A stretch of 64,000 nucleotides of DNA from Paragyromitra xinjiangensis (taxonomy: Eukaryota > Ascomycota > Pezizomycetes > Pezizales > Discinaceae): assembly GCA_038503065.1 (NCBI GenBank), contig JBCAMK010000016.1, positions 744,001-808,000 of the forward strand, read 5' to 3'. The position numbers and the translations under genes are program-made. Shown here piece after piece: positions 790 through 53,470 of this stretch. The notes under the pieces are model-generated. The model did not search any database. It was not told the DNA's origin and saw nothing but the letters and a program-made list of their open reading frames with translations. Position 1 is the stretch's first letter. Each line of letters starts with the position of its first letter.

Positions 790-3585
790 TGGAGATACAA
801 CCTCCTATAACAGGCATAGCCATGGCACAGCAGCTGAACTGCGCCAAAGGACAGGCCTCTACTCTTTCAGTCATTTCTTCTTTTGATCATTCTCAACATA
901 CTTTCATTCTCATGCTACAGGAACCATGGCTTGACCATAATTCACTTCCTCCAAATTCCAAAACTGGGGATGCATACTATCCTTCTTCTTCACCTAAAGT
1001 TATTATTTATATTAAGAAAAATTTAAAAAACACAAAAATAATCACCACACTTTCGCCCAACCCCAACATAATTTCAATTCTTATCAAAATTCCTCATCTT
1101 ACTTTTGAGATCTGCAACATTTACATCCAACCTCGTAGCAGCTTCAATGATCATCACCTTCCACTTCTTTCACATCATTTTCATCAGAACACAATCCTCG
1201 CAGGGGACTTCAACCTCCACCATCCTTGGTGGTATGGCCCCATCACCGAAAATTATCAACACCTCTTTTCGCACCGCATCGCGTTAACAGAACAAATCAC
1301 AAACTGGCTGGAAACTAACAACTTCCGCCTCCTCAACAAACCAGGCATCCTCACCCATTTTCCAAGAAACGGACAAAGACCCAGCATAGTCGATCTCACC
1401 ATGGTAAGAGGTCTCACCGACATCTGCGGACCCTGGTCAGCCCCCCCCAACTGCCCCCACAATTCTGATCATGTTTCATTAAAAACCACACTTTACATCC
1501 ATCCTCCGGAATATTCCAGCCGACGTTTATTTTCTAAAACAAATTGGCCTTTATTCCACAACATAATCCAAGAAGCAGCCATTCCCTTCAATTTCTCCAA
1601 TGAGGAGAAAGCTAATTCCACCCTCACCCACATCACGAACGTGATCAATTTAGCTATTGATTCAACAGTACCCCTTTCCAAACCTCGAACATATTCCAAA
1701 TCTTGGTGGACACCCAACCTCAAAGCCCTGAAAAGAAAACTTTCATGGGCAGAATCACGAGCACGGAAACCCAACGCCCCCCCTCACTGGCGACACCTCG
1801 CCAATTCTACAAGAAAGGAATACAAAACTGAAATAATGCTAGCCAAATGGGATCACTGGCACCGCACCCTCAAAGACATCACCCCCAGCTCTGCCTGGAA
1901 CCTTTTAAATAAAAGCACCGCACACAACAAGCCCAACATCCCCCCTATCGAGAAACAAGAAACCAACGAGGAAATTGGCAAAGCCTTTCGTCGCACTTTC
2001 TTTCCCCCACAGCTTACCCCACCCGATTTCCCCCCAAATTTCTTACCCCCCCCCTCCGCCAATACTGATCACATCCCCTTTCTGGTTACGGAAGAAGAAA
2101 TTGATTCCCTCCTCCAGAAATCGAACATGCGTACCGCAGTCGGCCCAGATGGGATCAATTACATCACACTCAGAGAAGTTCACCGTGCCCGCCCCTCTAT
2201 TCTTACTTCCCTTTTCAACAACCTCCTCCCCCTGGGTATCATGCCAACTTCCTGGAAGATAACCCCCTGCGTCCCCATTCCCAAATCAAACAAGGCGGAT
2301 TATTCATCCCCTAAAAGCTACCGCCCTGTTTCTCTCCTTTCTTGCTTTGGCAAATTACTGGAAAAAATAGTTGCCCGAAAACTTGAAACATGCGCAACAC
2401 TGCATGGCGCAATTCAATCACATCACACAGGAGCCAGAACAGGCATTTCTGCCACTGATTCACTTCACTTCATTCTCACCCCTGCGCAAAGACAACTGCT
2501 GATACCTGTCCCACACAATGACAAGAGGGCAATAAAACGTCCCTCCCGCCCATCCATTTTGGCAACGGACATTGACGGTGCATTCAATTGCGTATCTCAT
2601 CCCCATCTAATAAAAATTTTGGAACATTACACCTTCCCCTCATGGTGCATCAAATGGATGCAAAGCTTTACTTCCAACCGCACACTTGCCTTTCGAATCA
2701 ATAACGAACTGGAAACACCCCAACCACTCACGGTCGGACTCCCACAAGGCTCTCCACTTTCATCCATTGCCTTTGTCATTTATGCCACAGCACTTGATCC
2801 GCTCACTCCACATCCCTCCGAAACTTCTACCATCTATATAGACGATGACACTGCTCTACAAATGAGTAAGAAACCCGCCTTTGCCACCATACGCTTAGCG
2901 GAAAGATACAAGGCAAAGGAGAAACGGGCCTCCCACCTCAACATTAAATTTTCCGAATCCAAAACAGAGTTAATTCACCTTATCACCCCCTTCACCAGTC
3001 AACCACCAACCCAAACCATAACGCTAAACAATAAAATATTCCCCCCTTCGCCTCACATCAAAGTTCTAGGCATTGTACTGGATCAAAGACTCAACTTTCA
3101 TTCACATTGTCAACAAGCTGCTTCTCGGCTAAGAACTTCCTTATATCTGGTAAACAACCTAGTCAAAGACAAGGGACCCACTCCTAACCTTCTTCATCAA
3201 CTTACCCTTACCATCATTCTCCCGGCAGCCTTATATGGCTCCGAGGTATGGTGGACTGGATCACAAAGCATCTTGGACAGACTTTCACCAGCATATCATC
3301 GTGCCGCAAGGCTAATATCTGGCCTTTCCAAATTCACTCCTATACACAAGCTGTTACCCGAAGCCGGGTTAGCCCCGCTCAACCTCCTACTCGACATGCG
3401 CACCCAATATTACGGGCTACGCATCCTCCGCAATCCCAAACACCCCCTACACCCCACACTATTACAATATCTCCATCCCACCGAATTTAAAGGCACTGGT
3501 CTACAACGAGTCGGCTCCTTGCTTGCCAGGCATCTTCACGGGGAACAAACCGACAACAACAACGCCAAAGTGACTTTTTGGTCAC

Positions 3586-3955
3586 AACTCCACCAGTTTT
3601 ACTCCGATTGCTCTACTTTTTGATTATTCGGACTCGCCTCGCTGCCCTCGTTCGATCCTGCTATTGTACGTCTGGTTTGCTCCGGATTTGCAAAAGTTGT
3701 TGTCGAATTCGCCTATTTACCCCTCACTTCCAAAAACCTCACCCAATCTTGAGATTCTGCATTTTCTCATAACTCCACCAGTTTTCGTCCGATTAGCTCG
3801 ACCCCGGGCTTTTTGGAACCGCCTCAGCGCGCCCGTTCGATCGCCCTCTCGTTCGTCCGGATCCGACCAGAACTGCAGAAGTTCTGCTCGATTTCCCACC
3901 CCCCTCCGCCAGGGACCCCTTCCAGGGCCCAGCAGCACCCCCCCAACACACCCCA
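3586..3955 (+). repeat. Duplicated 5' UTR monomers in B0 (period about 185 bp)
   Basis: Two related segments begin with AACTCCACCAGTTTT at 3586 and 3771. They share in order a TCCGATT box, a TTTTTG box, a CGTTCGATC box and a GCAGAAGTT or CAAAAGTTG box. The same two-monomer arrangement recurs in B2 (from about 13863 and 14050) and B4. In mouse L1, tandem 5' monomers act as promoter units, so a promoter role is a reasonable inference. No function can be read directly from the sequence. Confidence 0.7.
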
Positions 3956-3985
3956 CCTCCTCCTGTCGGTTCAGGACCCTTCTCT

Positions 3986-5533
3986 ATGTCTTCCTCTTCG
4001 TCTAGAGGCAGAGGGAGAGGCAGAGGCTTCAGGTCTCCCTCTTCTGTGACCAGCTCACCCCAAAACTCGCTCCAAACGCCATTTGGCGCCCCTACAACAC
4101 CCCCAAACACCCGATTTTCGCCTCTGCTCCATGGGGACCCAGAGCAAACACCTACACAAGCCCTGCCACTTCGCCCAGCAGTCCCCCTACCTCACTATGC
4201 CTCCCTGCCCGCCACAGAGCCTACAGACAGTGGCTCTGTCCTCCTGGAAGAGTCTGACTCTGACATGACGGACACAGAGGGACCCCTCACCTTCTCCACC
4301 ACCCTACCTCCAGTCATCCAGATGGATGACAGCAACAGCAATCTAGATCGCCTTGGTGCCATTGGTACTGGGGAGAACTACAACCCCTCCCTCTTCGCAG
4401 TGATGGATGAGCAGAACAGGCTCATCAAAGCACTCACCAAACGCGTCAAACAGCTTGAAAAAGCTATCCTCACACCCCCACCAGCCCCTACCTTCCACAA
4501 TGACCCAGCTCTAGTGGAAAAGGTGGCCACCCTTACCTCCAAGGTTGCAGACTTGGAACAGAAACGGACACTCACAACGATTCTGACCTCTGCCAACCTC
4601 CCCCTACCTCCAGCACCTGCTCCTCCGCCAGCTACCACCTCCTGGGCTCAGGTTGCCTCTAAAAAGGCTTCCAGACCCACCAACAAGGCCCCAAAGCCTT
4701 CCAAACAACCTACAGCGCCTCCAAAACGCGACAGAACCCTCATCATCACCAGGAATGGTCTACCCATTCCTGATGACATCACCCCACTCCTCATTCGCAA
4801 TGCAGTCAATGCTGCCCTGGAAAGGCCATTGATTGCAGAAGTGCGATTCACCCCTGCCCACCATGTGCAGCTCATTGCTGTCACCTCCACCACCTCCGAC
4901 TCCCTCCTCAAGCAAAGACAGAAGCTTGAGGAAGTTGTTCGCAACACCATTCCCAATGCCACCAGCATGGAGAAGGAAGCAGTCCTGACCCAGGTTGTTG
5001 TGCACAACGTTCCCACCTCCATCCCCTCTGGCGAAGAGGGATTCCAGCAGATCAGGTCTGAGGTTGAGCAGTTCAACCCAGGCACCACCCTACTTCGCGA
5101 CCCCCGCTGGCTCACTAGACCTGAGCAGAGAGAGGGGAAACAGGCATCCTCCATGGTTCTTACCATTGTGGGGAAGCAGCCTGCCACCACTGCCCTTGAG
5201 AGAGGGCTCTCCATGTTTGGACTTCGTCACAAAGTCACCAAATACCTTCGCTTTGGGCCAGACACTCAATGCACCACCTGCCTGGCCTTTGGCCACCCAC
5301 AACAACGCTGTACCAGCAAAACCCCTTACTGCAACATTTGCGCTGGGCCACATACAGCATCCTCTCACTCCTGCGCAACCTCCTCTTGCACCATCAAGGG
5401 AGCTCCTTGCCTCCACACTATCATCCGTTGCAAGAACTGTAACGAATCGCATCGTGGTAACTTTTCTGGTTGCCTCACACTCACTCAAGCAAGACTTAGG
5501 GCCAGTGAACGTCAGGATCGCATGGTTGTTTAA
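3986..5533 (+). CDS. B0 ORF1 gag-like RNA-binding protein
   Basis: 515 codons, intact. It opens with a Ser run and an RGRGRGRG tract (RNA-binding type). A Pro/Thr/Ser-rich region follows, then an acidic stretch (EESDSDMTDTEG) and two heptad-like segments (NRLIKALTKRVKQLEKAI and PALVEKVATLTSKVADLEQK) likely to form a coiled coil. Next is a basic KRDRTLIITRNGLPIP block. Three Cys/His clusters close the protein, the first a standard CCHC knuckle (CTTCLAFGHPQQRC). The start is the ATG before SSSSSRGRG, the same in all three B copies. The protein is related to, but clearly distinct from, family A and D ORF1. No ORF2 follows: the downstream 300 bp is 3' UTR. It differs from the B4 copy at many third codon positions while the C-terminal half stays similar, which suggests past selection on the protein. 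Confidence 0.88.
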   Translation: MSSSSSRGRGRGRGFRSPSSVTSSPQNSLQTPFGAPTTPPNTRFSPLLHGDPEQTPTQALPLRPAVPLPHYASLPATEPTDSGSVLLEESDSDMTDTEGPLTFSTTLPPVIQMDDSNSNLDRLGAIGTGENYNPSLFAVMDEQNRLIKALTKRVKQLEKAILTPPPAPTFHNDPALVEKVATLTSKVADLEQKRTLTTILTSANLPLPPAPAPPPATTSWAQVASKKASRPTNKAPKPSKQPTAPPKRDRTLIITRNGLPIPDDITPLLIRNAVNAALERPLIAEVRFTPAHHVQLIAVTSTTSDSLLKQRQKLEEVVRNTIPNATSMEKEAVLTQVVVHNVPTSIPSGEEGFQQIRSEVEQFNPGTTLLRDPRWLTRPEQREGKQASSMVLTIVGKQPATTALERGLSMFGLRHKVTKYLRFGPDTQCTTCLAFGHPQQRCTSKTPYCNICAGPHTASSHSCATSSCTIKGAPCLHTIIRCKNCNESHRGNFSGCLTLTQARLRASERQDRMVV

Positions 5534-5843
5534 GTTTTTCCCTACCTGTTATGATTTAACCAGCCTTCAGGGGTCTTAGGATTCAGTGGAAGGAGGGCTA
5601 TAGGCCCAAAACATGCGATGGTGAAGGAAAAAGGAACAGGTTGAGATCTTCGGGTAGTCACTTGTCTTTCCTTATTATATCAACTGATGATGAGCCTGAG
5701 AGAGGCTGAGATGGAACTGGTGGAGGGTTTAGTTAGTTTGTTTTGTTTTTCTTTTCGTTCCTGTTGGGTTTTCTCTTATTGTACGCCATATCCGATTCGG
5801 ATGCATGCGAGTATGAACAATAAATGAATAAAGAAATAAATAA
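5534..5843 (+). other. B0 3' UTR and tail shared with family C
   Basis: About 310 bp of non-coding sequence. At 5595-5628 it carries GGGCTATAGGCCCAAA followed by CATGCGATGGTGAAGGA, almost identical to family C at 45666-45699. Near the end is the hairpin ATCCG-att-CGGAT (5790-5802), followed by an AATA-type tail (about 5818-5843). The same order occurs in B2, B4 and C. Confidence 0.8.
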
Positions 5844-6849
5844 CTTGCTTGCCAGGCTGTTAACCGGCGCCCCAATCGAAGATCTTTCCCTACCCATTCA
5901 CCCCTTTCTACACTCATCCCACAAACACATCCAAGGCACCAAACAATCCGCCTCCCTATCCCATATGGACTGGCTACATGGCCTGGTGAACGCCTGGATC
6001 CTATATTCTGATGGCTCCCGCGCTGAGAGTGGCATCACTGCCTCAGGCTGGAACATCCAACACATTCAATACGGAATCACCACCTCCTCTTACCAGGGCA
6101 ATTGCAACCTGGGACATCAATGCGAAAACGAGGACGCAGAAATACATGGCATTCAAGAAGCCCTATATTTCTTAATTCACAACTTGCCCGCGGATAATTC
6201 TACTGTTTATCTCTGTATTGACAATCAAAACGCCCTCTTATCCCTTTCCGGTAATAGCACTTCCAATTGCCAATACCTAAAGGACACACTGGCACACATA
6301 TCCACAATAAACAATCTCAATTCAGAAGTTTTTGGCCGATGGACCCCATCTCACACAAACATCCCCGGCAACGACATCGCTGATCAAATGGCCAAGCAAG
6401 GCCTCTCCCTCCCGCCATGTAAACATACATGCACCACACTGGGTTGGCTTCGTCTCCAACCCAAACTCAACCTCCTCAAGATGTGGCAACTCACAACCGA
6501 GACCCCAGTTGCCCTCCATCCTCCTTCAGTCGTGCGATTCCTCCGCCGAAATCAGGCAAAAGCAATATCCACCCTCCGCACTCAACAAACCAAGGCGGAT
6601 CCAAATCCTCTTAGTCCCCCCTCCATTTGTCAATGCGGAGCCATTAATTCTTCTCCACATCTAGCCCTCATCTGTCCACTTAATGGCACTACCCGACCAA
6701 ATTGGGGCCACAATTGGCATTCAGCCATACTCCTCAACAATAACCACATTGACCTCTTGCACTTTATCCACGAGAACAATCTGGCCATAATTTCAACCAA
6801 CAAGTATCTTTACGGCATATCCAATACAAACCTGCTAAATATAAATTGA

Positions 6850-12588: not shown

Positions 12589-14272
12589 TCATAAGGCAAT
12601 CCGGGTGGGGGAAGTTTTTCTTTTGTATCCGGTTGGTTTAAGTTTGGTTATAAAATTTCTTTACATAACGTTTTAGTTGGTTTGTTTTGGTTCGGTTATG
12701 TTTTATGTTTTGTATTTTCTTTAGGTTATATTGTTTTCATGGGGTAGTTGAGGTTGGCGGCGGATGAGACCATGTATCTTATATACGCGTGTCATTCAGA
12801 AGCTAGTTAGGTTAGCGACTGTCTAAAATTAAATGAAATTGGAAATTGGAAATTGGACCTCATCCTGCACGAGCAAAAAGAGCCCTGCAAAACTCCAATT
12901 CTACGTTGCAACGGCGTTACACACTGCAAAAAGTCTTTAACTCTTCGGCTTCATTTCTCACCACTTCCCCGCACTCGTACCTTTCCATCGGGCGCTCTGC
13001 CCCAACTTATCCTGTATCCGCCCCAAACTCCTCAGAGGAGATCCCGCACACCCTCCCCATCTCCCGTGAAGCTGGTGACCTTTGGCACCAACTTCACCCT
13101 CCCCCTCATCGGCAAGAAAAGAACCCTCTCCAACCCCTCACCAGCTCCCGCCCGCTCAGGATCACCCACTAAAATGGCTCAACCTGGACCCTCCACCGCA
13201 CAATCCCTCTTCGACACTGGCCCTCAGGGCCTTACCACAGACTCGCAATATCAGGATGAAGCCCTGATGCATGAACTCCCTGACGACTCCACCCCCAACT
13301 GGCTTCATGACTTCTCTGTTACAGAGGATTACATGCCCGAAATCCCTGATGACGGCAATACTGAGCAGTTCACAACCTGGCTCTTGAAGTCCAGCTTTGC
13401 TCGCCTCAACTCACAAACTGAGGAAAACAACACCCACCTCCTCGCCAAAATAACCATGCAGGAGAATGACATTCTCAGGCTAACAGATCAGACCAAGATC
13501 CTCCAAGAAATGGTTGGGAAACTATCCACCACCCTCAATAACATGGCCAGGTCCTTACAAACCATCGACAAGAACACCAGCCAACCCACCCGCCCCTCCG
13601 TACCTGCTAGCAACCAACAACAGAAGCCACCTCAAACAGCCCAGAAACCTCAGGTCCCACTGCTAAACAATGGCAAGCCTATGACCTACGCACAAGCAGA
13701 CAATGCCCCTGCGGACCCGTTCACCAAAGTCAACAAGGGCAACAAGAAGAAGAAGGCCCTTCCACCCAAACTCTTCCAACCCCAATTCACGGCAATCAAC
13801 CGTCAAATTATACTGGAAACCTCTAAACCGACAACAACAACACCAAAGTGACTTTTTGGTCACAACTCCACCAATACTACTCCGATTAACGAGATTTTTG
13901 ATTATTCGGAATCAGCTCGCTGCTCCCGTTCGATCCTGCTATTGTACGTCGAAATCGCTCTCGATTTGCAAAAGTTGTTGTCGAATTCGCCTATTTACCC
14001 CTCTTTCCCCCAAAACCACACCAAATCCCGAGATATTGCAAAACCTCATATCTCCACCAATACTACTCCGATTGACTCGACCCCGGGCTTTTTGGAGTCC
14101 CCTCACTGTGCCCGTTCGATCGCCCTCTCGTTCGTCCGGATCCGAGCAGTTTTGCAGAAGTTGTTGACACTTCCTGCTCCCACCCTCCCCCACCCGCCAG
14201 GGACCCCCCCAGGGCCCCACAGCAACCCCCCCATACACCCCACCTCCTCCTGTCGGTTCAGGACCATCCTCT

Positions 14273-16501
14273 ATGTCTTCCTCTTCGTCCAGAGGCAGAG
14301 GGAGAGGCAGAGGCTATCAGCCCTCCTCTTCTGGTGTCAATTCGCCCCAAAACACCCCTACAACACCCATTATCGCACCTACAACACCCCCATTTTCGCG
14401 TTTTTCGGCCTCCCACCATGGAGACCCAGAACAAACACCTACCCAGGCCCTACCACTGCGCCCTGCAGTTGCTCTGCAGGACTATGAATCCCTCCCACTT
14501 CCCCCAGACTCTCAGGACCATGAGATGAGTGAGTCTGAGAGTGAAACGGAAGACTACCACCCCCCCACCATGACCACCACCCTGGAGATGGCACAGACAG
14601 TCACTGAGCTGTGCAGGAATCTTCACAAATACCGCAGATGCATCAAGCAGATGATCAAGAAGATTGAAAGGCTTGAAACAGCAGCCAGGAAACCCACACC
14701 TCCTGCTACTTACCACAACGACCTGTAACGGACCCACAAGGCTGTTACATGCAAAAGGTAGAATAGACCCGGGCAGACGGAGAGGTACAAGGACCAGCAT
14801 GAGTGGAGTAGCTACCACATGCTAGGGAACACCAGTACCCCGCTGACCTGGTGGTTAGGAACATCCGGAGGTGCTAAGGCTGACGGGCCTGTAGCAGATC
14901 TCCGATGACATCAAGCACATAGAAATGCGGTTGAGTTCCTAATCCACCTGTGCATGCCCCACCAGCTATGGCTGATAGGCGGCGCAACTGGGAGAACTAT
15001 TCTAGCGGACACCTGACGCAACTATGGACTGATCAGCACCATGCAAGTAGTCCTGCAGGACTAGGCTGGCGGATCATAGAGTCCTGACTGGTAGAGCAGT
15101 GCATGAGGAGCGGTTGCACATGAGGTGCAGAACTCCAGCGGAATGTGAGAGAACACTTCCGAAGGGAACCGCCCATGATCACTGACAGGATTCAGGGTTA
15201 ACTGGATCCCCCAGCTGAGTAGAACTGAGTAGAGACGGCGAGCATGCAGTACTACAAGTACTGGCGAGCCCCGCCACCAGTTGCTCTTCTCCATCTTCAA
15301 CCAGAGACCGAGTGACGAGAATTACCGAGTTCCGCCCTTAAGATTATTGAGTATACTGCACGAAAATACTTTAAGATCTCAGCCTGACTTTAGTATAAGC
15401 AACGGCCGTTTTCCTACCTAGCCTGAGCAGTTGTCTAGAGGACCACCCCCATTACACGACCCTGCTCTTGTGGAAAAGATAGCAATCCTCACATCCAAGG
15501 TAGCAGACTTGGAGCAGAAACGCGCCCTGACTACCATCTTGGCCTCTGCCTCTGGCCCTGCCTCACTCCCTCTACCTCCAGCAGCTGCCCCACCACCTGC
15601 GCAACACTCCTGGGCTCAGGTTGCCTCCAAAAAGGCCTCCAGACCCGCCCCTAAGGCCTCCAAGGCCCCCAAAACATCCACAAGCCCCCCCAAACGCGAC
15701 CGCACACTCATTATCACCAGGAATGGTCTACCCATTCCTGAAGATGTCACCCCACTCACCATTCGCAATGCAATCAATGCAGCCTTAGAAAGCCCATTGA
15801 TTGCAGAAGTGCGATTCACACCTGCTCACCATGTGCAGCTCATTGCTGTCACCACCACCACCTCCGACACACTCCTCAAGCAGAGATCAAAGCTTGAGGA
15901 GATTGTGAGAACCACCATCCCCAATGCCAACAGCCTGGAGAAAGAAGTCACTCTCTTTCAGGTTGTTCTGCACAACGTACCCACCTCCATTCCTTCTGGC
16001 GAAGAAGGATTTCAACACATCAGGTCAGAGGTTGAACAGTTCAACCCTGGCACCACCCTCATGCGCGACCCTCGCTGGCTCACCAGACCAGAGCAGAGAG
16101 AGGGCAAGCAGGCTTCCTCCATGGTCCTTACCATTCAGGGGAAACAACCTGCCACCACTGCCCTTGAGAGAGGGCTCTCCCTTTTCGGACGCCGCCTCAA
16201 GGTTTCCAAATACCTTCGCTTTGGACAGGATACCCAATGCACCCACTGCCTGGCCTTTGGCCACCACCAACAGCGCTTTACCAGCAAGACCCCTATCTGT
16301 ACCATCTGTGCTGGGCCTCATACAGTGTCAACACACACCTGCGGCAAACCTTCCTGCCATGTCAAAGGATCTCCCTGCCTCCACACCATCCTCCGCTGCG
16401 CCAACTGTGGCGAACAACATCGTGGTAACTCCCCCGAGTGCCTCAAACTCACAGCAGCAAGACTAGCTGCAAGCGAAAGACAGAATCGCATGCAAATCTA
16501 A
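14273..16501 (+). pseudogene. B2 ORF1, interrupted by a solo LTR
   Basis: The ORF starts MSSSSSRGRGRG at 14273 and runs to the LTR inserted after 14723. It resumes at 15462 in the original frame (HNDPALVEK spans the site) and ends at 16501. The C-terminal half keeps the conserved RTLIITRNGLPIP, RDPRWLTRPEQREGK and zinc-cluster regions. In the first knuckle the last Cys is Phe (HHQQRF; TTT for TGT near 16276), so that CCHC is broken as well. Confidence 0.87.
14724..15456 (+). mobile_element. Solo LTR of a Ty3/gypsy element
   Basis: 733 bp beginning TGTAACGGACCC and ending CCCCCATTACA, flanked by the 5 bp duplication CGACC (14719-14723 and 15457-15461). It is nearly identical in sequence and equal in length to the gypsy1 3' LTR at 42286-43018. 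No internal sequence remains, so it probably arose by LTR-LTR recombination after insertion into B2. Confidence 0.93.
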
Positions 16502-16815
16502 GTCTCCCCCCCACCCTTACGACTTCATCTCCCTTGACAGTGCTCGGATTGTTGGAGGGACGTGCTATAGGCACAAAGCATGTGCTGGTGAAAGAAGAAT
16601 GCCCAGGGTAGTCTTGTCCTGTGAGAGAGGGCACTAGATCGGGGTATTAACACATATACTGAAGAATAGCTGTAGAGGGCTGAGTTGGACCCAGTGGGAG
16701 GAATCGGGTAGTTAGTTGCGTTTGATTTTGTTTTCTGTTTGGTTTTCTCTATATGTATGCCATATTCGTTTCGGATTTATGCAGTATGAAATATAAATAA
16801 ATAAATAAATAAATA
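16502..16815 (+). other. B2 3' UTR, hairpin and tail
   Basis: Non-coding. It contains a diverged version of the family C block (GTGCTATAGGCACAAAGCATG, about 16562-16582). The terminal hairpin ATTCG-ttt-CGGAT is at 16764-16776 and is followed by an AAAT-repeat tail to 16815. Confidence 0.75.
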
Positions 16816-32000: not shown

Positions 32001-33116
32001 AATATGGCATCACCACTTCCTCACACCAGGGCAACTGCAACCTGGGCCACCAGTGCGAAAAGGAAGATGCAGAAATACATGGCATTCAAGAAGCCTTACA
32101 TTTCTTCATTCACAACTTACCCGCCGATAATTCTACCATCCATCTTTGCATCGATAATCAAAACGCCTTATTATCACTTGCTGGTCACAGCACTTCCAAC
32201 CGCCAGTACCTAAAAGACACTCTGGCGCACATTTCCACATTAAATAACCTCAATTCCGAAGTCTTTGGCCGTTGGACCCCATTGCACACAAACATTCCCG
32301 GCAATGAAATCGCAGATCAAATGGCCAAACAAGGCCTTCATCTTTCACCATGCAAACATACTTGCACCACACTGGGATGGCTTCGCCTCCAACCCAAATT
32401 TAACCTCCTCAAATCATGGCAACTCACAACTGAAACTCCTGTTGCCCTCCATCCCCCTCCAGTCGTACGCTTCCTCCGCCGAAATCAGGCAAAAGCAATT
32501 TCCACCCTTCGCACTCAACAAACCAAAGCGGATCCAAATCCCCTTAAGCCCCCCTTCCCATGTCAATGTGGGGCCGTTAGCTCCTCTCCACATCTCGCCC
32601 TTGCTTGTCCACTTAATGACACCACTCGCCCAGATTGGGGCAACGATTGGCATTCAGCTATCATTCTCAATACGAACCACAACCGACAACAACAACGCCA
32701 AAGTGACTTTTTGGTCACAACTCCACCAATACTACTCCGATTAACGAGATTTTTGATTATTCGGAATCAGCTCGCTGCCCTCGTTCGATCCAGCTATTGT
32801 ACGTCGAGGTCGCTCTCGATTTGCAAAAGTTGTTGTCGAATTCGCTATTTTACCCCTCTTTTCCCCCCTACACCTCAAATTTTGAGATTTTGCAAAACCT
32901 CATATCTCCACCAATACTACTCCGATTGACTCGACCCCGGGCTTTTTGGAGTCCCCTCACTGTGCCCGTTCGATCGCCCTCTCGTTCGTTCGGATCGGAG
33001 CAGATTTGCAGAAGTTGTTGACACTTCCTGCTTCTCCACCCCTCCCCCTCCGCCAGGGACCCCCCCAGGGCCCTACTACTACACCCCACCTCCTCCTGTC
33101 GGTTCAGGACCCCTCC

Positions 33117-34601
33117 ATGTCTTCCTCTTCGTCCAGAGGCAGAGGGAGAGGCAGAGGCTTTCAGTCTCCCTCTCCTGGCGCAATTTCGCCATTCACCACC
33201 CCCACAACACCCACAGCACCCACTACACCCCCCAATTCGCGACTTTCTGCTCTCCACCATGGAGACCCAGAGCAGACCCCTACTCAGACCCTCCCACTGC
33301 GTCCTGCTGTTGCCCTTCAGGACTATGAGTCGCTCCCACTCCCTCCTGATTCTCAAGACCATGAGATGACAGAGTCTGAGTCTGAGCATGAGAGCATGGA
33401 GGATTTCGTGGCTCCCACCCTCAACACCACAGTCAAGATCGCAGATGCTGTGATCCAAATCGCCAGAGACCTCCACCAGTATCGCCTCTATGTGAAGCAA
33501 CTGGAGAGGGAAATCAGACGCCTCCAGAAGGCAGCCAGGAACCCCCCACCTCCCCCTACCATCCACAACGACCCAGCACTTGTGGAGAAGGTAGCAACTC
33601 TCACAACCAAGGTGGCAGACTTGGAGCAGAAACGCGCTTTAACTAGCATTCTGGCCACTGCCAACCTTCCCCCACCTCCAGCAGCTGCCCCAGCACCTGC
33701 ACCTCACTCATGGGCTCAGGTTGCCTCTAAAAAGGCCTCCAGACCCGCCCCCAAGGCCTCCAAGGCCCCCAAACCACCCACCAACCCTCCCAAGCGCGAC
33801 CGCACCCTCATCATAACCAGGAATGGTCTACCCATTCCTGATGATGTTACCCCACTTACCATTCGCAATGCAGTCAATGCAGCCTTAGAAAGCCCATTGA
33901 TTGCAGAGGTGCGATTTACACCTGCCCACCATGTGCAGCTCATTGCTGTCACCACCACCACCTCCGACACACTCCTCAAGCAGAGATCAAAGCTTGAGGA
34001 GATTGTGAGATCCACCATCCCCAATGCCAACAGCCTGGAGAAAGAAGTCACTCTCTTCCAGGTTGTTCTGCACAACGTACCCACCTCCATTCCTTCTGGC
34101 GAAGAAGGATTCCAACACATCAGGTCCGAGGTTGAACAGTTCAACCCTGGCACTACCCTCATGCGCGACCCTCGCTGGCTCACCAGACCAGAGCAGAGAG
34201 AGGGCAAGCAGGCTTCCTCCATGGTTTTGACCATCCAGGGGAAACAACCTGCCACCACTGCCCTTGAGAGAGGGCTCTCCCTTTTCGGACGCCGCCTCAA
34301 GGTTTCCAAATACCTTCGCTTTGGACAGGACACCCAATGCACCCACTGCCTGGCCTTTGGCCACCACCAACAACGCTGTACCAGCAAGACCCCTATCTGT
34401 ACCATCTGTGCTGGGCCTCATACAGTGTCAACACACACCTGCGGCAAACCTTCCTGCCATGTCAAAGGATCTCCCTGCCTCCACACCATCCTCTGCTGCG
34501 CCAACTGTGGCGAACAACATCGTGGTAACTCCCCTGAGTGCCTCAAACTCACAGCAGCAAGACTAGCTGCAAGCGAAAGACAGAATCGCATGCAAATCTA
34601 A
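33117..34601 (+). CDS. B4 ORF1 gag-like RNA-binding protein
   Basis: 494 codons, intact, starting at the conserved MSSSSSRGRGRGRG. The frame is open further upstream to an ATG at 32946, but that stretch corresponds to 5' UTR in B0 and B2. Layout: Arg/Gly-rich N-terminus, Pro-rich region, acidic patch, a coiled coil (YRLYVKQLEREIRRLQKA and PALVEKVATLTTKVADLEQK), a basic KRDRTLIITRNG block, a central conserved region, and three Cys/His clusters (first CTHCLAFGHHQQRC, complete). No ORF2 follows. The intact frame in an element without RT suggests the protein itself is useful to B, for example to coat its own RNA. Confidence 0.88.
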   Translation: MSSSSSRGRGRGRGFQSPSPGAISPFTTPTTPTAPTTPPNSRLSALHHGDPEQTPTQTLPLRPAVALQDYESLPLPPDSQDHEMTESESEHESMEDFVAPTLNTTVKIADAVIQIARDLHQYRLYVKQLEREIRRLQKAARNPPPPPTIHNDPALVEKVATLTTKVADLEQKRALTSILATANLPPPPAAAPAPAPHSWAQVASKKASRPAPKASKAPKPPTNPPKRDRTLIITRNGLPIPDDVTPLTIRNAVNAALESPLIAEVRFTPAHHVQLIAVTTTTSDTLLKQRSKLEEIVRSTIPNANSLEKEVTLFQVVLHNVPTSIPSGEEGFQHIRSEVEQFNPGTTLMRDPRWLTRPEQREGKQASSMVLTIQGKQPATTALERGLSLFGRRLKVSKYLRFGQDTQCTHCLAFGHHQQRCTSKTPICTICAGPHTVSTHTCGKPSCHVKGSPCLHTILCCANCGEQHRGNSPECLKLTAARLAASERQNRMQI

Positions 34602-34909
34602 GTCTCCCCCCCACCCTTACGACTTCACCTCCCTTGACAGTGCTCGGATTGTTGGAGGGACGTGCTATAGGCACAAAGCATGTGCTGGTGAAAGAAGAAT
34701 GCCCAGGGTAGTTTTGTCCTGTGAGAGAGGGCACTAGATCGGGGTATTAACACATAAATTGAAGATTAGCCGTAGAGGGCTGAGTTGGACTCAGTGGGAG
34801 GAATCGGGTAGTTAGTTGCGTTTTGTTTGGTTTTCTGTTTGGTTTTCTCTATATGTATGCCATATCCGTTTCGGATTTATGCAGTATGAAATATAAATAA
34901 ATAAATAAA
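34602..34909 (+). other. B4 3' UTR, hairpin and tail
   Basis: Non-coding. It carries GTGCTATAGGCACAAAGCATG at about 34662-34682. The hairpin ATCCG-ttt-CGGAT is at 34864-34876. An AAAT-repeat tail runs up to the target duplication. Confidence 0.75.
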
Positions 34910-41657: not shown

Positions 41658-42087
41658 CTTGGTGGGTGATCCGGAGCGAGCTGGGGCAGGTGAGGGGTTT
41701 GAGAGTTCTCTTTTGCGGCCGATGATGGGGAGGGTGAAGCTGGGGCCAAGGCCTACAAGCTTCACAGGAGATGGGGATGGGGTTCTGGAATGCCTCGGTG
41801 GAGTTTGAGGAGAATCCAGTGTGTTGTGGGGCAATGCGCCCGTGCTTTATGAAAGCGGGGTAAGGGTGGTGATAAATGAAGCGCGAGAGTTAAAGACTTT
41901 TGTGTGTGTGTAACGCCGTTGCAACGTAGATTTTGGAGTTTTGCAGGGATCTTTTTTAGTCGCGGGGACGGTGCTTTGGGAAGGTTATGACCAGGAAGAG
42001 GCTACATGGGAACCATGGGAACATCTTAGGAATAGTGACGAAGAGGCCCTTTCAGATTTCCACAAGAGGTACACTAAGAAGCCCTGA

Positions 42088-42285: not shown

Positions 42286-43018
42286 TGTAACGGACCCACA
42301 AGGCTGTTACATGCGAATGGTAGAATAGACCCGGGCAGATGGAGAGGTACAAGGACCAGCATGAGTGGAGTAGCTACCACATGCTAGGGAACACCAGTAC
42401 CCCGCTGACCTGGTGGTTAGGAACATCCGGAGGTGCTAAGGCTGACGGGCCTGTAGCAGATCTCCGATGACATCAAGCACATAGAAATGCGGTTGAGTTC
42501 CTAATCCACCTGTGCATGCCCCACCAGCTATGGCTGATAGGCGGCGCAACTGGGAGAACTATTCTAGCGGACACCTGACGCAACTATGGACTGATCAGCG
42601 CCATGCAAGTAGTCCTGTAGCACTAGGCTGGCGGATCATAGAGTCCTGACTGGTAGAGCAGTGCATGAGGAGCGGTTGCACATGAGGTGCAGAACTCCAG
42701 CGGAATGTAAAAGAACACTTCCGAAGAGACCCGCCCATGATCACTGACAGGATTCAGGGTTAACTGGATCCCCCAGCTGAGTAGAACTGAGTAGAGGCGG
42801 CGAGCATGCAGTACTACAAGTACTGGCAAGCCCCGCCACCAGTTGCTCTTCTCCATCTTCAACAAGAGACCTAGAGACGAGAATTACCGAGTTCCGCCCT
42901 TAAGATTATTGAGTATACTGCACGAAAATACTTTAAGATCTCAGCCTGACTTTAGTATAAGCAACGGCCGTTTTCCTACCTAGCCTTAGTAGTTGTCTAG
43001 AGGACCACCCCCGTTACA
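42286..43018 (+). repeat. gypsy1 3' LTR
   Basis: 733 bp, TGTAACGGACCC to CCCCGTTACA, with TG...CA ends inside an 8 bp inverted repeat (TGTAACGG and CCGTTACA). It is almost identical to the solo LTR at 14724-15456. A more diverged relative lies reversed at 47142-47816. Confidence 0.92.
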
Positions 43019-43020
43019 GG

Positions 43021-45657
43021 AAAGACCTCACCAACGATGAGATTCGGAAAGCAATCATGACCTCAGCACCAAAGAAAGCCCCTGGACCTGATGGAATTGG
43101 CTTCCTATGCATTCTAAAAGCATACCAAGTCGACCCAACGCAGTTCAATTCCTTCTACAAAGCCACCATGAAAGCAGGATACCACCCAACCATATGGCGT
43201 GAAGCTACAATTGCAATCATCAGAAAGGCCAATAAACCTGACTATACGATAGCAAAAGCCTACAGACCAGTATCACTCCTCAACTGCCTTGGCAAAGTCT
43301 CAGAAAAAATCATAGCAACCCGATAAGCATTTATGGCAGAAAGATACCACCTTCTCCATAGATGGCAAATTGGAGGTCGACCAAAAAGATCAGCTGTGGA
43401 TGCTTGCATGCTTATCAGCACGCTTGCTAATGCAGCCAAAAAGAAAGGCCTAACACTCTCTGCACTTTGCATGGACGTGAAAGGTGCATATGATTTTGTA
43501 TTCAAACGACGACTGATCAAGACCATGATAGAACTGGACCTCCCACTTCCCATCTGCCGATGGGTGGACTCCTTCCTCAGCAATCGAACAGCCTGCATTG
43601 CATTCGACGGTGAAATTGAATCCATGGCACCCATTCAAACTGGCATCCCACAAGGATCTCCAACCTCCCCTATCCTCTTCCTCCTCTACCTGGCTCCGTT
43701 GTTCAACGAGCTAGAAGAAAAAAATCCTGATTCCACCTGCCCCAGCTATGTTGATGATGTGGGCCTTCTGGTTACAGGAAAGTCTGAAGCAGAAAACACT
43801 CGAACACTGGAAGCAATGGCACTCACCTCCTCCGAATGGGGTGAGAAAAATGCCTTGTACTTTGACAATCCAAAGACAGAACTCACTCACTTCCACTCCA
43901 GACGAACAACTGACACCTCTGATGAAGCCAAAGTCACAATGCCTGATGGCAACGTGATTGAGGCTGCAGATGTCCAGCGATGGCTGGGTGTCTGGTTTGA
44001 CCGCAAACTCACATTCAAGCATCATGTGAAGACCAAAGCTGCCTCCGCACTTCAAGCCTTCATGGCTATCTCCCGTCTCGCGAGCACAGAAAGAGGACTG
44101 AGTTACAAAGCACTCCGCCAACTCTACCAAACCTGTGTAGCCACCATCAGTGACTTCGGAGCTGAAGTATGGTGGAACGGGCAGATTGGACTCAGCAACA
44201 CCATCCAGAAAGTCCAAAACCAAGCAATGCGCAAGATTGCTGGAGCCTTCAGAACCTCACCTGTCCATGCCCTGGAAGCAGAGACAGGACTCCTCCCTAC
44301 CCCAATCAGACTGGACGAGTTGCAAAGGAAATATGCACTCCAAGTCCTTTCCCTACCCAACACCCATCCCATCACCTCCCTCTGCCCTGACTCCTGGCCT
44401 TCAACCCAGGAAAACGACAACCCAGATAGCTCCAACAACACTCCATGGCACCAAACCACCATTTCCCCCAAATACGAAACAAGACTACATAGGATACTGG
44501 CATCTACCAACAAATGGGTCCAGCCACAATCAGAGATTGAATGCATAGGCAATCTGGCATGTCCACCATGGCACCAAAACACCATAGACATCTACATTGA
44601 CCCTGCAGACAAAGACGCAGCAGCAGAAAACCATCGGAACCACACAGCTGGAGACAGTACTAGGACTGATCGCCTAGTATTCTACACTGATGGCTCCCTC
44701 CTGGAAGGCAAAACAGGAGCTGGAGTTGCTGGTTTCCGCAGAGGTCACGCTGTGGTCAACAAATCCTACCACCTTGGCAAAGAAAATGAAGTCTTCGACG
44801 CAGAACTTTATGGTATTGCAAAAGCCACTAAGCATGCAATCCTACAAGTACAGCGATCACCTCACCTGACAAACAATGTCTACATCTACTGTGACAACCA
44901 AGCAGCAGTACAACGAATGACAACACCCCTCCCTATGCTAGGCTAACACCTGGTCATTGAAGCTTGCAACAACTTGCTTCAACTCGAAGACAGTGGCATC
45001 AAAACCCATGTTTATTGGGTACCAGGACATGTCAACGTTGCTGGCAACGAGCTAGCTGATAAGCTCGCCAAGATAGGAGCCCAAGGAACCAGGATAGAAT
45101 CAGATGTCCTCACCTCCATCACATACCTCAAGAGAAACATCAAGGAACACTCCCTGACGACATGGAAAGCCAAATGGAAGCAGGCAAAGAAAGGCCGCAG
45201 CTACTACGGACAACCAGCACTGAAACCAAGTGCCCCGCTGAGGGGAAACATCCCCAGAAGAACAGCCTCCACCATCACTCAAATGAGAACCGGACATGGA
45301 TACACCAAATCCTACCTCGCCAGAATCCCTACCAACAACATTGAAGACACTAAATGCAAATGTGGCTTCGATAACCAAACACCACAACACCTACTGCTAG
45401 AGTGTGGCCAGGAACCACTTCCTACCCATCGCAAAGCACTCAAAGCAGCCCTTAAACCAATGCCACTCACATGGAGAACTGCGATGCATACCAATGCTGG
45501 CCTGGCTGCCACCATTGAAACATTCCTCACACCAACCCAAATTGCTACCAGAAATTGGACCCTGGAACGACAAGAAGACAACAGGTACTCCCACCAAGGA
45601 ATATACCTCTACAACGACGAAGAGGAAGAGAGCGAAGGAGAAAGAGAGAACGGCTAG
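43021..45657 (+). pseudogene. LINE C ORF2 fragment (RT and RNase H) with two stops
   Basis: In frame from KDLTNDEIRKAIMTSAP at 43021. The RT motifs are APGPDGIGF, KAYRPVSLLNCLGK, MDVKGAYDFV, GIPQGSPTSP and catalytic YVDDVGLL (about 43748-43771). The RNase H motifs are YTDGSLLEGKTGAG, DAELYGIAKA, YCDNQAAVQ and VPGHVNVAGNELADKLA. A C-terminal CKCG...H...C finger follows. In-frame TAA codons at 43324-43326 and 44944-44946 break it. The second sits between RNase H motifs where a Gln codon is likely. The protein is clearly divergent from families A and D. Confidence 0.9.
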
Positions 45658-46086
45658 TAAAGAACGGGCTATAGGCCCAAAGCATGCGATGGTGAAGGAC
45701 GATAGAAAACTGATGAATACCCTGAAAGTGGGGTGAGATGGAATATGACCGTGTGGAGGATCTCTGATTATAAAAACTGTTTGAGTATTTCCCTATGATT
45801 TTACCCTGTCGATTGATATTCCGTTCGTTTCTACTGTTCGGTAGAACTTTGAGATAAAAATTGTTATTTCTTCTTTTGTTATTTTCCTTTTGTTATTTTG
45901 TTTTGATTTATGTTTCTTCTGTTTTTCGCAAAGGGATATCTGATGTGGATATCTACTAATTAGTTGGTTCATGTTCGCGGAGGATTTTCCTTTGTTAGTT
46001 ATTGTGTGGTCATGGGGTTTCCTTTCACTGTATGCCATATCCGTTACGGATTTATGCAATATGAGCAATAAATAAATAAATAAATA
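45658..46086 (+). other. LINE C 3' UTR, hairpin and AATA tail
   Basis: About 430 bp without a coding ORF. The block GGGCTATAGGCCCAAAGCATG with GCGATGGTGAAGGA (45666-45699) is nearly identical to B0. The hairpin ATCCG-tta-CGGAT (46039-46051) precedes the AATA-repeat tail. This shared 3' end is what links family B to family C. Confidence 0.82.
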
Positions 46087-47141
46087 ATGATCTCCTGGTC
46101 AATGCGTCCGGTTTTCCTCCTTGTTTTCCTGGGCGATAAGTAATAACAAAATTAAAACGTGAAAGGTACTTGGCCCATCTGGCTTGTCGACGGTTCAATT
46201 GCTTGGTGGTCATGAAATACTCCATGTTTTTATGGTCTGAAATAACAGAAATGGGGTTTGCCACTCCTTCCAGTTCCGGTCTCCATTCTTCAAAAGTGCG
46301 AATGATGGCAAGCAGTTCCTTGTCGTAGATTTCGTAATTGCACTCTGCCGGAGAGTGTTTTTTGGAAAAGAAGGCCGCTGGATGTAATACTCCGTTGTCA
46401 TCATACTGAGAGAGAACGCCAGCGGACACATAATCGGAAGCATCTGTTTCCACGAAGATTTTCTTATCCGGGTCAAAGTGCATCAGGATTGGAGCGGTGG
46501 TGAAAGCAAGTTTCAAGTCATCGAACGCCTGCTGTGCTTTTGGGGACCATTCAAAAGGTGTATCCTTTTTTGTTAGCGCTGTGAGGGGTGACGAAAGCCG
46601 TGAGAACCCAAATATGAACTGTCGGTAAAAGTTTGCAAACCCTAAGAAAGCTTGGACGTCTTTGACTGATTTTGGAATTCCCCATTCGCATACCGCTTTC
46701 AATTTCTCCTCATCCATGCTGATACCGTCCGGCGAGAGAATTAAACCCAAGTACTTTGTTGATTGGGTATGGAATTCGCATTTCTCAGGTTTAAGGAGGA
46801 TTCCTTGTTGTTTGAGGGCCTGGAGGACCTTACGAACATGTTCCTTGTGTTCTTCCAAGTCGTCGCTGTAAATCAAGATGTCATCGAGATAGGCGGTGCA
46901 AAAGATGTCCAGGTATTTGGTAAGGCAATCGTTAACAAAGCGTTGGAAGGTGCCAGGTGCGTTAGTGAGTCCAAAGGGCATGACCTTGTATTCATAGAGG
47001 CCGTAACGGGTGCGGAATGCTGTTTTCCATTCTTCTCCTTCTGCCATCCGTATTTGATTATACCCCATGCGGAGATCCAGCTTGGTGTACCATTTTGCCT
47101 TAGCCAAGCGGTCTAGGGTTTCTCGGATGAGGGGAGAAGTA
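46087..47141 (-). pseudogene. gypsy2 pol: RT and RNase H fragment
   Basis: Minus-strand Ty3/gypsy pol. It reads leftward from [22 protein letters not shown] (right end, about 47140), through the RT with catalytic YLDDILIYS (around 46880), [10 protein letters not shown] and RNase H ([25 protein letters not shown]), to the tether ([17 protein letters not shown]). There it is cut by LINE C. The right end is cut inside the RT by the LTR at 47142. The visible part has no internal stop. The rest of the element must lie left of LINE C and right of the D array, both outside the window. Confidence 0.9.
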
Positions 47142-52599: not shown

Positions 52600-53470
52600 A
52601 ACCTCCCAAGCAGCCTCCGAGTCAGCTGTCTGCCTGCCTCTGAATTGACTCACGAATTGACTCCTGAATTGACCCCGAATCGGCTGTTTCTGAGCCTCCA
52701 AATCCTGCTGAATCCACTGCCGAATTGACTCCTAAATAGACTCCGAATCGGCTGTTTCTAAGCCTCCGAATCGTGCTGAATTGACTGCCGAATAGACTCC
52801 CAAATAGACTCCGAATCCTGCTGAATTGACTGCCGAATTGACTGCCGAATAGACTCCCAAATAGACTCCGAATCCTGCTGAATTGACTGCCGAATTGACT
52901 GCCGAATAGACTCCCAAATAGACTCCGAATCGGCTGTTTCTAAGCCTCCGAATCCTGCTGAATCCACTGCTGAATTGACTCCTCAATCGAGTCCGAATCG
53001 GCTGTTTCTAAGCCTCCGAATCCTGCTGAATTGACTCCCGAATAGACTCCGAATCCCGTGCTTTCCTGCCTCCGAATAGGCTGTTTCCGAGCCTCCGAAT
53101 CCACTGCCAAATTGACTCCTGAATTGACTCCTGAATTGACCCGAATCGGCTATTTCTGAGCCTCCGAATCCTGCTGAATTGACTGCCGAATTGACTCCTG
53201 AATAGACTCCGAATTGGCTGTTTCCGAGTCTCCGAATCGACTCCTGAATTGACTGCTGAATAGGCTCCTGAATAGACTCCGAATCGACTCCCGAATAGGC
53301 TCCGAATTGACTGCGGAATAGGCTCCTGAATAGGCTCCTGAATAGACTCCGAATAGACTCCTGAATAGACTCCGAATTGGCTGCTCAATAGACTCCGAAT
53401 TGACTCCCGAATTGACTCCGAATCGGCTGTTTCTAAGCCTCCAAATTGACTCCTGAATTGACTCTATAGT
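52600..53470. repeat. GACTCC/GAAT minisatellite
   Basis: Short 10-12 bp units of the type GAATTGACTCC, GAATAGACTCC and GAATCGGCTG alternate for about 870 bp. A longer unit of about 65 bp (TGACTGCCGAATAGACTCCC with AATAGACTCCGAATCCTGC) recurs at about 52780-52930. Because units lack stops, repetitive frames such as ESIRQSIQQDS are open on the minus strand. I do not regard them as genes. Confidence 0.85.

What the first reader, a model, noticed from the sequence alone, without database searches (positions are those of the whole stretch)
3532..5843. Family B: ORF1-only LINEs resembling mammalian HAL1
Three B copies (3532-5843, 13825-16815, 32682-34909) have complete matching 5' and 3' ends and perfect 14-15 bp target duplications. 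They encode only an ORF1-type RNA-binding protein and no RT. Two keep the ORF intact. Truncation is ruled out because all three share the same ends. Mammalian HAL1 is the established precedent for ORF1-only LINEs. I do not recall a well-described fungal case.
Basis: partly seen in the sequence, partly recalled or inferred. Interest (0 to 1): 0.88.

Follow-up and report, generated by a model that had tools for sequence, protein, structure and literature searches.

The report
Fungal ORF1-only LINE hitchhiking on another
A retrotransposon in a fungus carries only the gene for its RNA-packaging protein, under strong selection, and seems to borrow the copying enzyme of a second, complete retrotransposon by ending in the same RNA signal.

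Summary
Confirmed. B1 (3532-5843), B2 (13825-16815) and B3 (32682-34909) are full-length LINE-type insertions with 14-15-bp target duplications. B1 and B3 keep one ORF (515 and 494 aa); B2's is broken by a solo LTR. No RT is found. Of 100 listed B 5' ends (110 in the genome), 69 meet a B-type 3' end 2.1-2.3 kb downstream; no B copy with ORF2 was found. ORF1 is under purifying selection: dN/dS 0.06-0.17 among close copies, 0.26-0.30 between subfamilies; 87 of 99 full-coverage ORF1 matches have no stop. Family C (3' part at 43019-46087; complete copy 6.3 kb) has its own ORF1 and an endonuclease-RT-RNase H ORF2. It shares with B both ends of the 3'UTR, including two hairpins and the AATA tail; the window's other LINEs do not. 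B's ORF1 is only ~29% identical to C's and groups with proteins of a Pezizales fungus, so B is no recent deletion of C. Listed B and C ends lie in one short, centromere-like interval per contig. Works like HAL1 or HeT-A; RT borrowing is inferred, not shown.

The parts
3518..3531 (.). B1 left target-site duplication CTTGCTTGCCAGGC (right copy 5844-5857)
   Evidence: sequence
3532..5843 (+). B1: full-length ORF1-only LINE inserted in a family A LINE
3986..5533 (+). B1 ORF1, 515 aa: two long helices ~134-201 (coiled-coil-like), two RRM-like folds ~249-421, CCHC-like knuckles after ~428
   Evidence: low-confidence model, mean pLDDT 54.7; knuckles read from the sequence
5534..5843 (+). B1 3'UTR; ends shared with family C (5595-5628 = first module; last ~107 bp = terminal hairpin and AATA tail)
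13825..16815 (+). B2: full-length B copy, ORF1 broken by a solo LTR; one knuckle Cys reads Phe
   Evidence: Cys change read from sequence
14724..15456 (.). solo LTR (TGTAAC...ATTACA) with 5-bp TSD CGACC, 97% identical to the LTR at 42286-43018
32682..34909 (+). B3: full-length ORF1-only LINE
33117..34601 (+). B3 ORF1, 494 aa, 72% identical to B1 ORF1
43019..46087 (+). 3' part of family C, the probable RT donor: RT and RNase H coding region (broken by stops in this copy) and 3'UTR
45666..45699 (+). first shared 3'UTR module (hairpin GGGC-TATAG-GCCC and following conserved bases), 97% identical to B1
46016..46087 (+). second shared 3'UTR module: terminal hairpin ATCCGNNNCGGAT and AATA tail, 85% identical to B2/B3

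Best explanation
B is a non-autonomous LINE lineage that encodes only its own ORF1-type RNA-binding protein. Its RNA is packaged, preferentially in cis, by that protein. It is then reverse-transcribed in trans by the ORF2 protein of family C, which is recruited by two structured modules at the two ends of the 3'UTR that B and C share. Shown: the anatomy, the absence of an ORF2 in the B copies examined, purifying selection on ORF1, and 3'-end sharing with C and not with the window's other LINE families. Inferred: trans use of C's ORF2 protein, cis preference of the B protein, and the function of the hairpins.
For: Lack of ORF2 is the family state: 69 of 100 listed B 5' ends have a B/C-type tail at 2.1-2.3 kb; ORF1-to-tail is 250-285 bp in 61 of 85 matches. 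ORF1 dN/dS is 0.06-0.17 for B1 against 26 copies and 0.26-0.30 for B3 against 27 copies (L003 dropped); for B1 versus L008 random placement of the same changes expects 33 nonsynonymous and 16 synonymous, observed 8 and 42 (four pairs simulated). 87 of 99 full-coverage ORF1 matches have no stop. 3' modules: the only non-B matches of B1-B3 in the window at E<=1e-5 are the two ends of C's 3'UTR (the LTR inside B2 aside); in the full C copy they are 94% over 34 bp and 77% over 110 columns. Families A, D and E end differently. In 17 chosen 3'UTRs hairpin 1 has one pair that is GC in 9 and UA in 8, and 99.1% of cells pair. C is complete: one copy has ORF1 of 534 aa and ORF2 of 1334 aa, another copy's ORF2 has endonuclease, RT and RNase H. 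The full C copy has a 16-bp TSD, B 13-15 bp. B and C share the same intervals.
Against: No expression or mobility data. Covariation rests on one toggling pair: the count of pairs changed on both sides (1) is reached in 500 of 500 shuffles, although the covariation score (0.084 against 0.028) is reached in none; two C sequences break the outer pair of hairpin 1; the +2 slide also gives 6 two-sided cells (36.7% paired); rows share ancestry. An autonomous LINE with a B-like ORF1 below ~70% identity could exist elsewhere: protein searches scored 84 of 582 and 87 of 581 candidates, and LINE RTs ~29-33% identical to C's exist, most of them outside the intervals. 31 of 100 listed 5' ends have no tail at 2.1-2.3 kb, and not all were traced; 10 of 110 were not listed. 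Intactness counts favour well-preserved copies, because best matches are listed first. 5'UTR and 3'UTR divergences disagree between some copies, so mosaicism may blur dS. 6 of 25 copies have no TSD.
Confidence: 0.78

Rival explanations
1. B is mobilised by a different, unseen autonomous LINE that carries a B-like ORF1 plus ORF2; the 3' similarity to C is shared ancestry only.
For: B-type ORF1 is an old lineage: B and Maublancomyces gigas proteins P0001-P0003 form one clade (100/100) apart from C, and whether those M. gigas copies carry ORF2 is unknown. Genome protein searches were capped.
Against: No such element appeared among 85 B1-ORF1 match rows, 119 B3-ORF1 match rows or the 5'/3' end pairing. 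C's two 3'UTR modules match B, and C has complete, near-identical copies.
Confidence: 0.13
2. B is a recent internal deletion of C (a true HAL1-style derivative) amplified from one master; ORF1 looks intact only because copies are young.
For: Same 3' ends as C, both extremes of the 3'UTR kept.
Against: B ORF1 is ~29% identical to C ORF1. B and C do not share a 5' end. B3 against B1-type copies has dS ~0.71-0.80 with dN/dS 0.26-0.30, so ORF1 was kept over long divergence. The tree puts B with M. gigas proteins.
Confidence: 0.04
3. B is mobilised by family A, D or E, in which it is often inserted.
For: Of 25 B copies, 6 have family A on both sides and 2 have D; A, D and E have homologous ORF1s.
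Against: A, D and E 3' ends differ: GAAATTG repeats, AAACACTA repeats, poly-A. B1-B3 show no DNA match to their 3' ends. Insertion into A may only reflect target abundance.
Confidence: 0.05

Closest known systems
HAL1 (half-L1) of mammals
   Same: Non-autonomous LINE derivative that encodes only ORF1p (PMC5753468, passages seen). That it uses L1 ORF2p in trans is recalled.
   Different: HAL1 is a derivative of L1 that arose several times (same passage). B's ORF1 (RRM-like folds plus CCHC) is only ~29% identical to that of the LINE whose 3' end it shares, and is an old separate lineage.
HeT-A of Drosophila telomeres
   Same: Non-LTR element with Gag but without pol, thought to use the TART or TAHRE enzyme; found with its partners at one chromosomal landmark (PMC5537684, passages seen).
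   Different: HeT-A sits on chromosome ends; B inserts internally with 13-15-bp TSDs in one centromere-like interval per contig. B and C share 3'UTR modules.
MoTeR2 of Magnaporthe oryzae
   Same: RT-less fungal element that, if mobile, probably uses the RT of a partner (MoTeR1) with which it shares terminal sequence (PMC7367193, passages seen).
   Different: MoTeR2 shares 860 bp at 5' and 77 bp at 3' with MoTeR1 and has an unrelated 786-bp stretch without obvious function. B has its own selected ORF1 and shares only 3' modules.
SINE/LINE tail-sharing pairs (stringent 3'-end recognition)
   Same: A non-autonomous element shares a structured 3' tail with its LINE (PMC3747384, passages seen).
   Different: SINEs carry no protein gene (recalled); B carries a conserved ORF1.

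Membership tests
ORF1-only LINE (HAL1-like in mode) | Full-length copies encode an ORF1-type RNA-binding protein | tested here: met
ORF1-only LINE (HAL1-like in mode) | Full-length copies lack ORF2 | tested here: met
   69 of 100 listed 5' ends have the tail at 2.1-2.3 kb; ORF1-tail 250-285 bp in 61 of 85 matches; exceptions not all traced
ORF1-only LINE (HAL1-like in mode) | ORF1 maintained by selection | tested here: met
HAL1 proper | Derived from an L1 element by loss of ORF2 | tested here: not met
   The complete LINE that shares its 3' end, C, has an RNase H-bearing ORF2 and only ~29% ORF1 identity. That mammalian L1 lacks RNase H is recalled
HeT-A | Sits at chromosome ends, added without target-site duplication (the latter recalled) | tested here: not met
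   TSDs of 13-15 bp in 19 of 25 copies; short internal intervals
HeT-A / HAL1 | Uses RT of another element in trans | not testable with these tools
   Inferred from absence of RT and shared 3' modules
MoTeR2-type | Shares both 5' and 3' ends with the autonomous partner | tested here: not met
   B1 and B3 match C21 with E below 0.01 only in the 3'UTR
SINE | Short, Pol III-transcribed, no protein gene (recalled) | tested here: not met
   B has a conserved ORF1; Pol III promoter not tested

The most novel reading that the evidence does not exclude
B and C form a two-component retrotransposon system that colonises centromeres. B supplies a diverged ORF1 protein that packages and perhaps steers RNP to centromeric chromatin; C supplies ORF2. 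This would be a centromeric, fungal counterpart of HeT-A/TART, kept since before the split from Discinaceae.
Probability: 0.15. Interest if true: 0.82.

Novelty: new variant of a known kind. Interest (0 to 1): 0.6.

Why it matters
ORF1-only LINEs pose an open question: why would a parasite of another element's enzyme keep its own RNA-binding protein? Here the protein is under strong selection while the enzyme gene is absent, so ORF1 probably acts for the RNA that encodes it. The putative donor and the candidate RNA signals are identified, which makes the question testable. The case would extend ORF1-only LINEs to fungi; the open-access library searches made here listed no fungal family of this kind (one search listed 12 of 26 papers). 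The nearest found were MoTeR2, and powdery-mildew genes said to have evolved from truncated LINE ORF1s (PMC6022598, passages seen).

Tried and rejected
Rejected: truncation or chance ends (shared ends, TSDs); neutral ORF1; recent deletion of C; A, D or E as donor. Rfam has no match in window 3500-5900 at E<=1. PDB sequence search with the ORF1 profile gave five rows, best E 0.092. Target-site motifs of B and C were not compared: only two C copies had both ends, one with a TSD. P0009, found with C ORF1, groups with B ORF1 (99/99, long branch); a profile search that included it gave only P0001-P0004 again. Dropped before counts: L003 from dN/dS, because its C-terminal end is frame-shifted (it gave 0.45 against B1 and 0.33 against B3); L001 and L005, which repeat window B1 and L040. 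In one search, 63 of the 73 C-type rows were used, 40 of the 42 rows, and 100 of 110 5' ends. The 17 rows were chosen by me: 15 of the 48 or their equivalents, plus L026 and L028.
Full report
What was checked. The three B copies stand exactly at the coordinates given, each between identical 14-15-bp target duplications. B1 and B3 have intact ORFs of 515 and 494 aa. B2's ORF is cut by a solo LTR with its own 5-bp duplication. Pfam finds no RT or endonuclease in the B1 and B3 ORFs.

Genome-wide picture. The window lies in an unnamed 48.2-Mb genome of 22 contigs. Two protein searches with B ORF1 found relatives only in Maublancomyces gigas, a fungus of the Pezizales (about 8,000 candidates scored each), so the host is probably an ascomycete of that order (inference). 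The B 5' end pattern has 110 matches and the 3' tail pattern 181, with 0 in controls. Of the 100 listed 5' ends, 69 meet a tail at 2.1-2.3 kb. ORF1-to-tail distance is 250-285 bp in 61 of 85 B matches; C's RT-to-tail distance is 1081-1102 bp in 28 of the 63 C rows used. Tail lists were complete for contigs C1-C12 only.

Exceptions. In one search four of the 100 5' ends had a C RT between themselves and the next listed tail. C4:1808800 (tail at ~7.0 kb) is read as a B copy with a C inserted at about codon 10 of ORF1: B resumes beyond C's tail at C4:1801765. C4:1765474 is B interrupted by another B. C20:848341 has a B3-type tail at 2.1-2.3 kb once one search is added. C2:3081608 is followed, about 2.3 kb on, by a C match that starts at residue 87 of the query, as a neighbouring truncated C would; this was not verified. 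The remaining unpaired ends were not all traced.

Selection on ORF1. Among fetched loci, 28 of 31 ORF1s that are not cut by a locus end are intact; across there are 99 distinct full-coverage matches, 87 without a stop (recounted). Both counts favour well-preserved copies, because the best matches come first. B1 against 26 close copies gives dN/dS 0.06-0.17 (dS 0.09-0.23), and B3 against 27 copies 0.26-0.30 (dS 0.71-0.80) (Nei-Gojobori; frame-shifted L003 dropped). Random placement of the same substitutions predicts about two nonsynonymous changes for each synonymous one; for B1 versus L008 the data show 8 to 42. Caution: 5'UTR and 3'UTR divergences disagree between some copies, which suggests mosaic subfamilies.

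The putative donor. Family C, of which the window holds a 3' part (43019-46087), has 73 match rows of 83% identity or more among 82; some copies are split over two or more rows. One complete copy (L013+L059) is 6.3 kb with a 16-bp TSD, an ORF1 of 534 aa and an ORF2 of 1334 aa; another copy's ORF2 has endonuclease, RT and RNase H domains above Pfam cut-offs. B and C are alike at both ends of the 3'UTR: a 34-bp module just after C's stop codon (94-97%) and the last ~70-110 bp (77-85%) with a terminal hairpin and AATA repeats. The three other LINE families in the window (here A, D, E) end in other sequences. In 17 chosen 3'UTRs, 99.1% of cells of two named hairpins form standard pairs; one pair of hairpin 1 is GC in 9 and UA in 8 sequences. 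Against this, that one pair is the only one changed on both sides, a count that all 500 shuffles reach, two C rows break the outer pair of hairpin 1, and 11 of 14 pairs never vary. B and C share no 5' end.

Location. The 280 listed rows of B and C ends (some ends listed twice) span 31-207 kb on each of the 22 contigs, together 5.5% of the genome. Not every end is listed: 10 of 110 5' ends and part of the 181 tails are not. The window's interval also holds nested LINEs and a chromodomain-bearing Gypsy end. This looks like regional centromeres; no CENP-A data were available.

Mechanism. Most likely the B transcript is bound by its own ORF1 protein, which explains selection on the gene, and the C ORF2 protein starts target-primed reverse transcription on B's C-like 3' end. 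The cis step and the trans step are inferred. Precedents: HAL1 (PMC5753468), HeT-A (PMC5537684), MoTeR2 (PMC7367193), and tail-sharing SINE/LINE pairs with stringent 3'-end recognition (PMC3747384); of each paper only passages found by term were read. The HAL1 origin paper is not held.

Verdict. A real ORF1-only LINE family in a fungus with its probable donor: a new variant of a known kind. The open-access library searches made here (one search listed 12 of 26) listed no ORF1-only fungal LINE family; two of the listed papers were looked into by passages. Subscription papers and Repbase were not searched.

Noticed in passing
window 1-35305: Family A LINE copies (ORF1 583 aa, ORF2 endonuclease-RT) follow one another head to tail with a ~5.7-kb period, several of them serving as target for B.
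   Followed up: partly
window 41968-42087 and 42286-43018: Chromodomain (Pfam Chromo, E 1.5e-8) at the end of a Gypsy-type coding region followed by an LTR of the same family as the solo LTR inside B2; a Gypsy-type RT/RNase H lies on the minus strand at 46055-47107.
   Followed up: partly
window 52640-53464: Array of imperfect repeats with a 12-base core (TGCCGAATAGAC-like) and higher-order periods of ~57-70 bases, next to the family D LINE copies.
   Followed up: no
window 3582-3710 and 3767-3895: B's 5'UTR contains two ~125-bp copies of one sequence at ~69% identity; the same duplication is in B2 and B3, perhaps a doubled promoter.
   Followed up: no
L046, L049, L051 against window B1: 5'UTR and 3'UTR divergence differ strongly (e.g. 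L051: 5.6% against 25%), as if B subfamilies were mosaics made by template switching.
   Followed up: no
P0005: A protein from a JGI collection is 86% identical to C's ORF1 over 75% of it, so a close relative of the host or of C is present in a public data set.
   Followed up: no
G000:C13:1547342, C20:1252235, C18:1214660, C15:115157 and others: LINE RTs ~32% identical to C's lie outside the B/C intervals; their ORF1s and 3' ends were not read.
   Followed up: no
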